In this document: positions 18,086 through 27,000 of the stretch, in pieces
How positions within the stretch are numbered: position 1 is the first letter of the stretch
Layout: each line of letters opens with the position of its first letter
Program-made: the position numbers and the translations under genes
The notes under the pieces: generated by a model
Told to the model about the DNA's origin: nothing
Databases searched by the model: none
The model's input: the letters and a program-made list of their open reading frames with translations, nothing else
NCBI GenBank assembly: GCA_930367205.1
Contig: OV884011.1
Span: 35,539,754-35,603,753 of the forward strand
DNA from: Acanthosoma haemorrhoidale
Taxonomy: Eukaryota > Arthropoda > Insecta > Hemiptera > Acanthosomatidae
DNA length: 64,000 nucleotides
Direction: 5' to 3'

Positions 18086-21000
18086 TTAAGCCCTTGGCCG
18101 AGTAGACTTGACATCAAAAAGTTTCCTGACGAAGTAGACTTGAACAACAGTTGTGATAAGAATGACCAGTATCTGGATCACAGACCAACGAAGGACGTAG
18201 GTGTTGTTATCCATGAGGAGGTTGAGATGACGATCCTCCATGCCTCGCATGTGGTTCTGGAACTGGAGCATGTCGTTGATGTTCCTCTCAACATTCTGGA
18301 TGGCTACCTGTGACATGTAATGGGTTTGTATGTTAACTTGAGATGTTTCTAATTGATATATAGAGAAAAACTTTCAAAATCTACCTTAGAATTCTAAAAA
18401 CTTAAGATCCAATAGAACAAATAAAGAAGTGATAACCAAGTATTCATGATAGAAAAAATAAATTACTTAAACCCTGAAGAGCACAAAAATAACTGTATAT
18501 TTATATATAATAGCACATAATCTGAGAAATGTCATTTGACATCCTTAGTCAACTGGAAAGTTTGTTAATATCTGTTGTTTGGTATTTTTAAGGGTTTGTT
18601 AAAGCAAATTTCAGTTATATTCTTAAACACATATTTTCCTCCTGTACTCTGTTTTGGGAAGTTTCTTCTAGATATCATAAGGGGGGGGGGGGTTCAGTCT
18701 GCGGTGTGAATATTTTAAACACCTTGTTTCTTTGAGTTGTTAGCTCGAATTGACCTCATTAATTGTTTGTTTTACTTAGTCGAATGAAGAAACAGGTAGG
18801 AACAACACCAACAAATATTATGTAACATAAGCTTTAAAAGCCTATTATTCGCATAACCTTTTTACATATACTGTTATAGATCTAGTCATTTGCTTTCACA
18901 TTTATCGATTCATTCCCTCCTTTTATCTATAATACGATTTATAGTATATTGTTTACTAAAGATTACCGATAACGTCATTGCCCAGGATTTAACGCTTATT
19001 TTATTTTCCCTATGTTCCAATTATATACCTCCAACCATTTTAATTTGTGACTAACTACAATATCCAAATCTAACGACCGAAATGGGGTTGTCTTCAGTAT
19101 TAATATAACAGTCTATGAAAGGACTCATATATCACAGTCTGGGACCTCATATCCAATATCCGTGAGCTCTGAGCAAAGGGTCCAATTTTAGCAAAGTATA
19201 AAAACCGAAACCATGCAAAGGATGAATCATTTGCAGAAAATTAGGATCTATTCCGAGGCTGTTGAAAGCGTTAGAAGAATTTATATAATGCTTTTTAAAA
19301 TTGCAACAGACATATTTGAAAAAAATTATGTGATGTTACATTAAAAAAACTTTTTATTTTTAAAAACGAAGACCTAAAATAATAATTGACTCGCTATACT
19401 TATGGATATAAACTAATTTATCTGGGGCACCATAGAAAAAGAAGTCATAAATTAACTAAAATGAAATAAGTATGGAAGAATAAATTATGATCTGTAGAAT
19501 AATTCTGTCCATTAAATTACTGTTTACAAAAATTATTGTAAGTGTTGTTTATGTAACAGGTTAAGTAAAATTGTAAGTTTCATGCATAAAACATATTTTT
19601 ATCCTCCTGAAAAATCACAATTTTTTTTTATCCCCTATCACACTGGATATATAACCAAGTGCGGATTATCTCTACGATATTCGCACTTTTGGCAAATGGC
19701 AACGCTTTTTTTTTTATGTTTGAGTTAAATTTTAAAAACTTACAAAAATACTAATTTGAATGGTTATAAAGATGAAGAAAATATTAAGAATACACTTTGT
19801 TACATCAATCTAGTGTGAAGTTAGGCAGCATAACACATAACGTGTAAAAAAGTTAATTGCCGATAAATAAGATCGTTAACAATCACTAGAGCAGCAATAA
19901 TTATCTATGTTATCAGGAGCCAGCTGCTCTTTGAGTGAATATAGTAGGAGGGATATTGGTTAGATTGATTACAGACAGATGTTAGATTTTTCAGCAAATT
20001 CATTTATAGACACTCTTTAGTCTGTGAAAGCAAGGTGCTGATAAAGAGAAAAGAAAGAGAGGTGTTAAAAATGATGGCAACATTGTTATTAACAAGAATA
20101 CAAACAAAGAGCTATAAGTGAAATGTAAATCATTTTTTTTCTGATCTTTTCTTCTCGTATCTATATCGATTTCCCGTTTTCTTAGACCCTCTGAATTGAA
20201 TTTATACAAAATACAAATGATTTAATGAACATAATTATTAACAGAAGTTATAAACAAGGGTCTAGTCGTTTGTGAAAGAATACTTCTATAGTTAGAAAAT
20301 ATGGAAAAAATAAAATGGGAATTTGACAAAGTTAAAAAAATCTTACACATTACATTTTTATACAAAGTATAAAAACATGGTCTTGAGAAGGTTTGATAAT
20401 ATTAATCAATGATATGAAAATAATAATACATTAATAAGTGTGGGTTTTAAATGTCTTGTTATCAGGACCATCAGCACCAGGCGACACAGATGGTATCCCA
20501 TTCATAAATATATCTATTATCTTTCGTGTATTGACCTCACCTGATATCCGAGCAAATTCATTCACTTAAATTAAAATCTAGCTCTGACTATGAAACTCAA
20601 ATTTTCTTAAGGAACAAAGAATTTTAGGAAGTAAAGCTGTTAAGGCCAGATAAAGTTTTTGTTTTGTTGGAAAAGTGAAGTAAAAAATTAATTTGTTTGT
20701 TAGATTTAATTATTTATTATTTTCGTTACTGACGTAAAAAACTGTTAATAAAAATCGTTTTTTTTTATTGTTCATGTAAAATATGATTGTGTAATTTCTA
20801 TTCATTATATTTCGTAAGATTAAATTGTAATCTAAGTTAAATACCTAAAGGAAAATTCCATACCTAGGACAGTGGCACTTTGGACTTTTGGTAGGGGAAC
20901 TTGTGGGCCCAAGCCCATTTACGTCAGTGTTGAGGTAACGTCTGAAGGGTTAAGGTGTACCGATCTCAGACTTAATTGGCCATTTGGCCAAAATCATACC

Positions 21001-24000: not shown

Positions 24001-27000
24001 ATATTATTAGAGCACCATATAGTTTCAGCAGAAGTGGGGAAGAACTATCAAATAGTTATTTCGAGGACGCGCCACAAGATGGTTTTGTTAAACAAACTAA
24101 ATCACCTTCTGTCAGAGGTTTCAAATTAAAACAACCTTCAAAACTGCTCATGAGCACGAGTCCTTCTGTTTCAAGCGGTGCAAATTCTGCCTCTAGAAAA
24201 CCATTGCCATCTGAAAATTCCAATCCGATGCGGCCCAGTGCTCAAAATATTGAAAATTTGAATAGTTTCAGTTCAAATTTCTCCGATAAAGAAAATAGAG
24301 CTTTACCAGTCAAAGTACCTGCAAGACCTGTTGATCAGGCGATTGTTAATAATAGAAATGAACTTAAGGCAAACTTGGCTCCACATTTATCCACAACACC
24401 ACAGTCATCGAGTATCTCATTTCCAAATTCAACGCCACAAGCATCGAATATGTCATTTCTAAATTCAACGCCTCAAGCATCGAATATGTCATTTCCTAGA
24501 GATGAAGAACTAATGACTCAATACACCCCTGTGTTTTCTAAACCTACAAAAACTGCTAACATTTCTCATACATCATTTAGTTATAGTGAAAGTCCGAAAG
24601 AGTTTGAGCCTACACAATGTAGCATGGAAAATGTTATTGAAAGTAGTACCAAGGAATTCAATTTAACAAATTATCCACATTCAGTTGAGATGATGAAGGT
24701 ATTCCGCACAAAATTTGGACTTCATAAATTTCGTCCAAACCAAATGGAAGCCATCAATGCTGCTATGTTGAATTACGACTGTTTTATACTTATGCCGACT
24801 GGTGGAGGTAAATCTTTGTGATATCAGCTGCCAGCAGTGCTGAGCAGAGGAACAACTATTGTCATTTCACCTCTCAAGTCTCTGATTTTTGATCAAACTG
24901 AAAAACTGAGTACTCTTGTGGTTAAAATTGAGGCCGTCCTCAACTCTCGACCATTGTACCCCATTTCCTCCTCTCCTAGTGAATACGATGTGCTGTCACC
25001 TGGTCATTTTTTAATTGGGGCCCCCTTGTTGTCATTGCCTACACCTAACTTGACAGACGTACCAGAAAACAGATTAACGAGGTGGCAAATTGTACAGCGT
25101 TGCATTCAAGACATCTGGACAAGATGGCGTTACGACTACCTAAACAGTCTACAACAACGGACGAAGTGGACTTCCTCAAAGCCAGATTTGACTGTTGGAA
25201 CATTAGTTTTACTAAAAGAACCCAACGTATCAGTGCAAAATTGGCCCACCGGTCGAATAATTGAAATCTATCCTGGGAAAGATGGGATAGTTAGAGTGGT
25301 AAAAGTTAAAACTCCAAAAGGAGAGTACACGCGAGCTGTTTCCAAATTGGCACCATTGCTACCACAAACAGGGGCCAACTAATATGGCCACAATAAATTC
25401 ATGTTAACCTTTGAAATTTTCAATGAAAATTTGGTGGGCGGTATGTTAAGGCCAGATAAAGTTTTTGTTTTGTTGGAAAAGTGAAGTAAAAAATTAATTT
25501 GTTTGTTAGATTTAATTATTTATTATTTTCGTTACTGACGTAAAAAACTGTTAATAAAAATCGTTTTTTTTTATTGTTCATGTAAAATATGATTGTGTAA
25601 TTTCTATTCATTATATTTCGTAAGATTAAATTGTAATCTAAGTTAAATACCTAAAGGAAAATTCCATACCTAGGACAGTGGCACTTTGGACTTTTGGTAG
25701 GGGAACTTGTGGGCCCAAGCCCATTTACGTCAGTGTTGAGGTAACGTCTGAAGGGTTAAGGTGTACCGATCTCAGACTTAATTGGCCATTTGGCCAAAAT
25801 CATACCTATATGATCTTCAACGTTCCCCTTGGAGCTTGGAATCGCCGCCCCTGCGGTTGGATTTTTTTTTGAGCCTCAACCTGACCACGACAGCTCTACG
25901 TTTTGTTTGCAGCCCGCACCCGCGAGAGCACTTGAACTGCAACTTTCCGCTGCGTGAATATACACTTATTTCATATATACACTAAAAGTGACGAGAATTT
26001 GGTTAATTCCTTTGGTTGTTGAGGATAAAAGACGTTTTTTTGTTTGAAACCAGTCTGTCTTACATTGGCAAATTTTATTGTTATTAACCAGGCCTGGGTA
26101 TTTTATTTTGCTCCTCATTTTTTTTTATGATTTTTTTTTTTTATAATATTCTGTTTAATTTTAGAATAAATGTATTGTGAATTGGCATCAACTCTTATTT
26201 ACATTAATTTACAGTCCACTAGTTCATGCTAATGAACCAACCTGTGTTTGAATTATCACTTGGAAGTATATAATACTCCACGGGTAGTTCAGCGTAAACA
26301 AAAGCCATTTTCTTGTGGATCTTATGACATTGAAAATTAAGTCTAGAGAGAATATAAAAATTAAAAAGAGAATACATACAGTAGAACCTTGCTAATCCGG
26401 GATCAGAGGGTAGGTCAGAATAGCTAAAAGGTCGAATTAACCAGAAATGAACAAATACGTGTGTTTTTACATATTTTTTCAAAATGACAGGCAGTTTTTG
26501 TCGATGTTAAACTTGTACTAGAAGCCAATTAGTGTCTATTGCAAGTTGTTTAAACTTATCGATGAATACTTCTGCCCCAGCTTTGGTCAAACGAATATTT
26601 TTCACCTGAAATAAGAAATTGTCTAATTTTTCCAAAAAACTGTCGAAGTTTCCTATCCATGGCGAGTATCCACTGCTGGAGGCAGCATATGTCTCTCCGA
26701 AGAATGTAAAGCGATTTCTTTTTTCTCAAATATCGGTCTTGATGAAGGAGTACCTTTTTTCCTCTATTGGTTAAACCAAATCCATTTGCATCATATAATA
26801 AAGGGTGTCCCAGAATTAACACAAGATTTGAATTTGCCGCCATTTGTACAGGCAACCCTAAAAAAAAACAATTAGACGGCTGACAGTTTAGGGTTAGTAA
26901 AAATTGAGCGTTTCACGATAGAACAACGTGTCTTTATTGTTAAACATTATCTCAAAAATAATGAAAGTTTGGCTGCCGCAGTTCGAAAATTTTATACAAA

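What the first reader, a model, noticed from the sequence alone, without database searches (positions are those of the whole stretch)
20638..26300. BEL/Pao retrotransposon has swapped its RT, RNase H and integrase core for a piece of host BLM helicase
Seen in sequence: LTR-bounded element with BEL Gag, DSGA protease and integrase C-terminal domain. Between the start of the RT domain and the integrase C-terminus there is a stretch carrying FGLHKFRPNQMEAINAA and ILMPTGGGKS, the BLM-type RecQ start. Known: transduction of host mRNA by LTR elements happens by template switching and gives oncogenic retroviruses their genes; captured DNA-repair helicase sequence in a BEL element is not something I know of. 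Inference: a spliced BLM transcript was copied into the element, making a non-autonomous chimera that needs helper reverse transcriptase and integrase.
Basis: partly seen in the sequence, partly recalled or inferred. Interest (0 to 1): 0.95.

Follow-up and report, generated by a model that had tools for sequence, protein, structure and literature searches.

The report
Retrotransposon family carrying stolen BLM helicase
In a shieldbug genome, a jumping element picked up a piece of the host's own DNA-repair gene BLM in place of its copying enzymes, and this damaged hybrid now sits in more places than the intact relatives that probably copy it.

Summary
Window 20638-26300 is a complete BEL/Pao LTR insertion: 855/857-bp LTRs with no mismatch and a 5-bp target duplication. 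Its RT, RNase H and integrase core are replaced by 1,071 bp of BLM. The same assembly (866 Mb; Acanthosoma haemorrhoidale, inferred from scaffold sizes) holds:

- Donor: the host BLM gene; two of its introns are exactly missing from the captured copy.
- Likely helpers: eight RT-bearing relatives at 98% identity or more; of six fetched, four have one stop-free gag-pol frame.
- Family: 33 full-length and 4 partial copies, on five autosomes and X.
- One longer capture (L037) whose BLM runs on into an unspliced intron.

Donor and helper share 13 nt at the left joint, 8 nt at L037's right joint and 4 nt at the window-type right joint. This points to reverse-transcriptase template switching, then an internal deletion. 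Chimeras and helpers show no fixed difference in two pieces tested and share three LTR subtypes, so they probably recombine. N:S is near neutral and 27 of 33 copies have a TGA in the Walker A region, so no BLM function is indicated. The mechanism is known (maize Bs1; LTR-mediated retroposition); an amplified animal BEL/Pao case with all players present is new to me.

The parts
20633..20637 (.). Left copy of target-site duplication AAAGC
20638..21492 (+). 5' LTR, 855 bp, subtype A
   Evidence: subtype read on the 3' LTR
21497..21514 (+). Probable primer binding site (TGG...), inferred from its place just after the LTR; the primer tRNA was not tested (search unanswered)
   Evidence: inference
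21678..24821 (+). Open frame Gag - protease - linker - BLM fragment, ending at TGA
22074..22493 (+). Gag domain DUF1759 (PF03564)
23067..23165 (+). Aspartic protease active-site region (DSGA); below Pfam cut-off in four protease models
23839..23851 (+). Left joint: TGGATAATGATAT, identical in the six helpers fetched and in host BLM (13 nt)
23839..24909 (+). Captured BLM cDNA (three exon pieces joined, two introns absent)
24819..24821 (+). TGA in place of the BLM Cys codon (TGT in host BLM and in 6 of 33 copies)
24906..24909 (+). Right joint: CTGA shared by BLM exon and helper integrase (4 nt)
24910..25382 (+). Integrase C-terminal remainder with DUF5641 (PF18701); catalytic core absent
25432..25443 (+). 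Probable polypurine tract before the 3' LTR, inferred from its place
   Evidence: inference
25444..26300 (+). 3' LTR, 857 bp
26301..26305 (.). Right copy of target-site duplication AAAGC

Best explanation
A BEL/Pao element of this shieldbug packaged a partly spliced RNA of the host BLM gene beside its own RNA. During minus-strand synthesis the reverse transcriptase jumped from the element (in integrase, at AAAUAAAC) to the BLM RNA and back to the element (just before RT, at UGGAUAAUGAUAU). The product kept LTRs, Gag, protease and integrase but had BLM in place of RT and RNase H; L037 is a surviving copy of that kind. A later jump or deletion between two CTGA tetramers removed the intron tail and the integrase core, giving the window type. 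The chimera keeps the LTRs and leader and its own Gag and protease, and relies on RT and integrase from intact relatives. With that help it reached 32 full-length window-type copies, recombining with helper RNA on the way. Shown: structure, donor, introns missing, joints, copy numbers, RT-bearing relatives, youth, shared polymorphism. Inferred: co-packaging, order of events, dependence on helpers. The BLM piece is most likely passenger sequence.
For: Parent BLM gene at C1:20.3185-20.3205 Mb: exon pieces match the capture at 95.8% (including a variable 36-bp repeat region), 96.9% and 98.2%, and the two introns (GT and AG ends) are absent. Joints of 13 and 4 nt and 8 nt in L037; a random breakpoint pair lies in a shared run of 13 nt or more in 0 of 200,000 draws, of 8 or more in 0.03%, of 4 or more in 2.3%. 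33 of 33 full-length copies have the same left joint, 32 of 33 the same right joint. RT-bearing relatives: 8 at 98% or more, 3 older at 92-95%; 4 of 6 fetched have a stop-free stretch of 1735-1742 aa; the one scanned has RT, Pao peptidase and integrase matches. 26 LTR pairs: 0-3 mismatches each, 31 in 22,156 sites; TSD of 4 bp in 23, 5 bp in 2, none in 1 tandem copy. No fixed chimera-helper difference in gagB_PR or INc, 7 and 6 shared polymorphic sites. Three LTR subtypes all found in both kinds.
Against: The window-type right joint has only 4 nt of overlap, compatible with an ordinary DNA deletion. Helper and BLM gene share other long words too (8 shared 13-mer positions in sense, 3 in the antisense control), so the 13-nt run is not the only possible switch site. 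The order L037 first, window type second rests on one damaged, diverged copy. Shared polymorphism could partly be old variation sorted into both groups. No RNA, particle or reverse-transcription data were available, so co-packaging and trans-mobilisation are not observed.
Confidence: 0.93

Rival explanations
1. DNA-level event: BLM genomic DNA or a processed BLM pseudogene was joined into an element by double-strand-break repair.
For: Short microhomologies also mark end joining; the second step (4 nt) may well be a DNA deletion.
Against: Two introns are precisely absent while part of a third is present in L037, as in a partly spliced RNA. No separate intronless BLM was found: the other matches are the three-exon gene, partial copies of this element, or a satellite array. 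The capture is in sense orientation and has shared runs at both ends.
Confidence: 0.05
2. The BLM part is functional for the element or host, for example a Gag-BLM fusion that interferes with host BLM or aids integration.
For: Both window-type joints keep the reading frame, and 32 of 33 copies keep the frame open over the main BLM piece. Chimeras outnumber RT-bearing relatives. Six copies keep TGT, so the fusion frame once read past 24819. N:S is slightly below the neutral value in three of four pieces.
Against: N:S among copies is close to the neutral expectation (BLM 40:17 against 3.12:1; gagB_PR 31:12 against 3.09:1). 27 of 33 copies stop in the Walker A region. Only the start of the helicase domain was captured. 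Open frames are expected at this age (0.14% LTR divergence).
Confidence: 0.08
3. Assembly artefact or chimeric contig.
For: A single window could be misassembled, and repeats are prone to collapse.
Against: 33 full-length copies share the left joint and 32 the right; of 26 copies with readable LTR pairs, 25 have a target duplication. The assembly rests on long reads and Hi-C (PMC9971695, passages).
Confidence: 0.01

Closest known systems
Maize Bs1 (LTR element with fragments of three host genes)
   Same: Segments of host genes transduced into an LTR element; a chimeric gene resulted (PMC13317346, passages). That Bs1 keeps gag but lacks RT is recalled.
   Different: Plant element, three donor genes, and a new gene that is transcribed and translated; its low copy number is recalled. 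Here: animal, BEL/Pao, one donor, 33 full-length copies, near-neutral.
LTR-mediated retroposition in animals (Tan et al. 2016)
   Same: Microsimilarity-driven template switching between LTR element RNA and cellular mRNA, frequently taking a limited part of the mRNA (as described in PMC5408686, passages; Tan et al. itself not held).
   Different: In the passages read these are retrocopies; here the chimera became a propagating family with likely helper and an apparent intermediate still in the genome.
Acutely transforming (oncogene-carrying) retroviruses (recalled)
   Same: Host coding sequence replaces pol or other genes; replication needs a helper; two template switches.
   Different: A germline retrotransposon family; no sign that the captured piece acts.
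Non-autonomous LTR families such as TRIM, LARD, BARE-2
   Same: Parasitise proteins of an intact relative and may outnumber it (recalled). Veju TRIM and BARE-2 are named as products of abnormal template switching in PMC13317346 (passages).
   Different: This one keeps its own Gag and protease and carries an identifiable host gene.

Membership tests
BEL/Pao LTR retrotransposon | LTR pair with target-site duplication of 4-6 bp (range recalled) | tested here: met
BEL/Pao LTR retrotransposon | BEL Gag (DUF1759), protease, DUF5641 integrase end | tested here: met
   the protease match is below its Pfam cut-offs
BEL/Pao LTR retrotransposon | Pao-type RT, RNase H and integrase core | tested here: not met
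   Absent from the window copy. RT, Pao peptidase and integrase matches are present in the helper scanned (rve just under its cut-off); RNase H was not identified on its own. So the window element is a non-autonomous derivative of a BEL/Pao element, with 97.9-99.8% identity to the six helpers in gag, protease and integrase-end pieces.
LTR-mediated retroposition / transduction | Insert is processed host RNA (introns removed), sense orientation | tested here: met
   part of a third intron is present in L037
LTR-mediated retroposition / transduction | Shared short sequence between element and mRNA at the joints | tested here: met
   13, 8 and 4 nt
LTR-mediated retroposition / transduction | Co-packaging of both RNAs in particles | not testable with these tools
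   no RNA or particle data
Helper-dependent (non-autonomous) family | Many integrated copies without RT/IN core, with target duplications, plus intact relatives | tested here: met
   dependence itself inferred
BLM / RecQ helicase | Complete helicase, RecQ C-terminal and HRDC domains | tested here: not met
   Only the stretch matching H. halys BLM residues about 434-770 is present, and it stops in Walker A in the window copy

The most novel reading that the evidence does not exclude
Two BLM-derived elements in one genome may be linked by RNA silencing. Besides the transposon family, chromosome 2 (3.438-3.441 Mb, L041) carries a long inverted repeat of 36-bp units homologous to a coding repeat of the host BLM, with arms of about 1.24 kb at 97% complementarity. 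A hairpin RNA from it could make small RNAs that match BLM and, somewhat better, the BLM piece carried by the transposon. Host control of BLM, or of the BLM-carrying element, would then run through a hairpin, with the transposon acting as target, decoy or source.
Probability: 0.1. Interest if true: 0.85.

Novelty: new variant of a known kind. Interest (0 to 1): 0.66.

Why it matters
How LTR elements pick up host genes is, as far as I know, mostly inferred from old, single remnants. Here the donor gene, RT-bearing relatives, a longer-capture form and the amplified product sit in one assembly at about 96-100% identity. The breakpoints, template overlaps and likely order of events can be read directly, and helper dependence becomes testable. 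It also suggests that gene transduction in animals need not be a dead end: the gene-carrying chimera outnumbers its close RT-bearing relatives. A DNA-repair gene fragment spread to over 30 places could also feed antisense or small-RNA effects on the parent gene.

Tried and rejected
Considered and rejected: a BEL pol origin of the segment (it matches BLM). An exact left boundary from protein alignment alone was ambiguous and was replaced by the DNA comparison. An early variable-site table was spoiled by alignment of partial copies and was redone. The first LTR tree contained one helper LTR disturbed by a nested insertion (L045); it was rebuilt without it, 38 of 39 rows, and both trees mix helpers and chimeras. 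Of 33 copies, 28 LTR pairs were tried (27, the window's); bounds of two (L018, L024) could not be resolved and five copies were not tried. Helper L045's bounds were not resolved, and no target duplication was read for helpers L043 and L044. A protein search with the satellite-array frame found nothing. The primer tRNA search did not complete. A whole-genome LTR search did not complete and was dropped, so solo LTRs are not counted.
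Full report
What is in the window. The insertion at 20638-26300 has LTRs of 855 and 857 bp that differ by a single 2-nt indel, and AAAGC on both sides. One frame runs from the ATG at 21678 to a TGA at 24819-24821. It carries BEL Gag (DUF1759), aspartic-protease matches below their cut-offs, and then the start of a RecQ helicase. 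Phmmer against solved structures gives human BLM first for both pieces around the TGA. The protein search gives Halyomorpha halys BLM first, at 48% identity over 82% of the queried part. After the BLM stretch the same frame continues into the integrase C-terminal end (DUF5641).

The host. The genome searched as 'own' has 865,609,456 bases in 72 contigs. The six contigs met here have 193.5, 157.4, 125.7, 120.7, 116.6 and 129.2 Mb (C1-C6). A genome note for the hawthorn shieldbug Acanthosoma haemorrhoidale gives 866 Mb, 72 scaffolds and the same sizes for chromosomes 1-5 and X (PMC9971695, passages). The species is therefore inferred, with high confidence, and C6 is X.

The donor. In that genome the captured segment matches one interrupted gene at C1:20.3185-20.3205 Mb, in three exon pieces. 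Around it the BLM protein of H. halys can be followed piece by piece from residue 5 to 1229. The two introns inside the captured stretch have GT and AG ends and are absent from the element.

The family. 39 first-look candidates were found and all 39 scored. 33 places match the segment over its whole length, on C1 to C6, and 4 more are partial; one of these is a 50-bp remnant in a tandem unit. All 33 have the window's left joint (0-1 edits in 53 nt) and 32 its right joint (0-3 edits in 44 nt); L037 is the exception. The three partial copies checked have the left joint. Two of the 33 (L030, L035) share the flank next to the 5' LTR and look like a segmental duplication. Two (L026, L027) stand 4,798 bp apart in tandem. 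In 26 LTR pairs with clear bounds, the window's included, there are 0-3 mismatches each, 31 in 22,156 compared sites (0.14%; indels not counted). Target duplications are 4 bp in 23, 5 bp in 2 and none in one, a member of the tandem. Two further pairs could not be bounded and five copies were not tried. With a recalled insect rate near 3e-9 per site and year this is of the order of 0.2 million years, a rough figure.

The helper. A search with the integrase end gave 40 scored places of 57 candidates: 33 beside full-length BLM copies, 1 beside the 50-bp remnant, and 6 without BLM. These six were fetched and align to BEL polyproteins over gag and pol; L045 does so in broken pieces, with an LTR fragment inside. 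One was scanned in two pieces: RT, Pao peptidase and integrase matches are present (rve at 31.3 bits, just under its cut-off). Four of six have a stop-free stretch of 1735-1742 aa. A search with an RT piece (40 of 46 candidates scored) finds 8 places at 98% or more and 3 at 92-95%. The chimeras thus outnumber the close RT-bearing relatives about four to one. By the tool's note both counts are lower bounds.

The joints. At the left joint TGGATAATGATAT is shared by all six helpers fetched and by BLM; at the right joint CTGA is shared. In L037 the BLM part runs past that point into the next intron of the gene and joins the helper's integrase at AAATAAAC. Random breakpoint pairs lie in a shared run of 13 nt or more in 0 of 200,000 draws, of 8 nt or more in 0.03%, and of 4 nt or more in 2.3%. 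The 13-nt word is not the only long word shared by helper and gene: there are 8 shared 13-mer positions in sense (the longest shared word is 15 nt) and 3 in the antisense control. In the helper scanned, the integrase zinc and core matches lie upstream of the window-type joint but inside the part that L037 keeps. The simplest order is therefore: capture of BLM in place of RT and RNase H (L037-like), then loss of the intron tail and integrase core between CTGA repeats. L037 is a single, damaged copy, so this order is inference.

Exchange with helpers. In gagB_PR (22701-23838) and INc (24912-25379), 33 chimeras and 6 helpers show no fixed difference and share 7 and 6 polymorphic sites. Three LTR subtypes, marked by an insertion or deletion near the LTR start, occur in both: A in 19 chimeras and 1 helper, B in 10 and 2, C in 4 and 3. 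A tree without the disturbed L045 rejects helpers as one clade (AU p 1.9e-5; 38 of 39 rows; few well-supported branches). The first tree with L045 did so too, but with a long odd branch. Recombination between co-packaged RNAs is the likely cause.

Does BLM do anything? The codon at 24819 is TGT in host BLM and in 6 of 33 copies, and TGA in 27. The window-type fused frame once continued, and the stop rose with an expanding lineage. Nonsynonymous to synonymous changes among chimeras are 31:12 (neutral expectation 3.09:1) in gagB_PR, 40:17 (3.12:1) in BLM before the TGA, 6:1 (2.41:1) after it, and 19:9 (2.66:1) in INc. Three of the four are slightly below neutral and one above; none shows strong constraint. 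Broken frames: 3 of 39 in gagB_PR (one of them a helper), 1 of 33 and 1 of 32 in the BLM pieces, 4 of 39 in INc. The captured protein part is best seen as a passenger.

Against what is known. Maize Bs1 and LTR-mediated retroposition use the same principle (PMC13317346, passages; PMC5408686, passages). Complex elements formed by template switching are reported in wheat relatives (PMC1950507, abstract). Eight full-text searches on the subject listed no paper on BLM or RecQ sequence inside an LTR element, nor on an amplified BEL/Pao transducing family. I saw only the rows listed (for instance 20 of 51, 20 of 162 and 10 of 73), and the library is partial, so this is not proof of absence.

A second BLM-derived locus. 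Part of the captured stretch is a 36-bp coding repeat. At C2:3.438-3.441 Mb about 76 units of a related 36-bp repeat (42.0 and 34.2 copies) form two opposed arrays, with arms of 1,241 nt at 97% complementarity. The longest exact match to BLM is 19 nt. The nearest 21-nt words have 1 mismatch to host BLM (1 word of 518) or to the chimera (5 of 518), against 5 or more in one shuffled control. Drosophila hairpin-RNA loci that target a repair gene are recalled as a parallel. No small-RNA data were available.

Noticed in passing
L041 1958-5064 (G000 C2:3.438-3.441 Mb): Large inverted repeat of tandem 36-bp units homologous to the BLM coding repeat, flanked by 30-bp tandem units: a candidate hairpin-RNA locus.
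   Followed up: partly
L037 (G000 C6:126.05 Mb, X): The only one of 33 full-length chimeras with a longer BLM capture running into an intron, and with the integrase zinc and core region present.
   Followed up: yes
L026/L027 (C3:41.51 Mb) and L042 (C2:92.60 Mb): Tandem units 4.8 kb apart, apparently sharing LTRs; in L042 the first unit keeps only about 50 bp of BLM.
   Followed up: no
L030/L035 (C3:4.49 and 4.40 Mb): Same 40 bp of 5' flank and identical 3' LTR: probably a segmental duplication that includes the element.
   Followed up: partly
window 21493-21515 and L035: The stretch after the 5' LTR differs between copies (TAATTGGTCCTCCGGGCCGGATC against TAATTGATCCTCCGGGCCCACATC), perhaps two primer-site variants.
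   Followed up: no
window 5801-7537, minus strand: Uninterrupted 578-aa frame with ITFG1 C2 and FG-GAP domains: a host ITFG1-like gene in one open frame.
   Followed up: no
window 27048-27504: Frames resembling a mariner transposase by recalled motif (WFQQD...CHT); Pfam gave no match for the 64-aa piece scanned.
   Followed up: no
G000 C5:16605117, 16611133, 16617149: Three short RT-piece matches exactly 6,016 bp apart: perhaps a tandem triplicate of another element.
   Followed up: no
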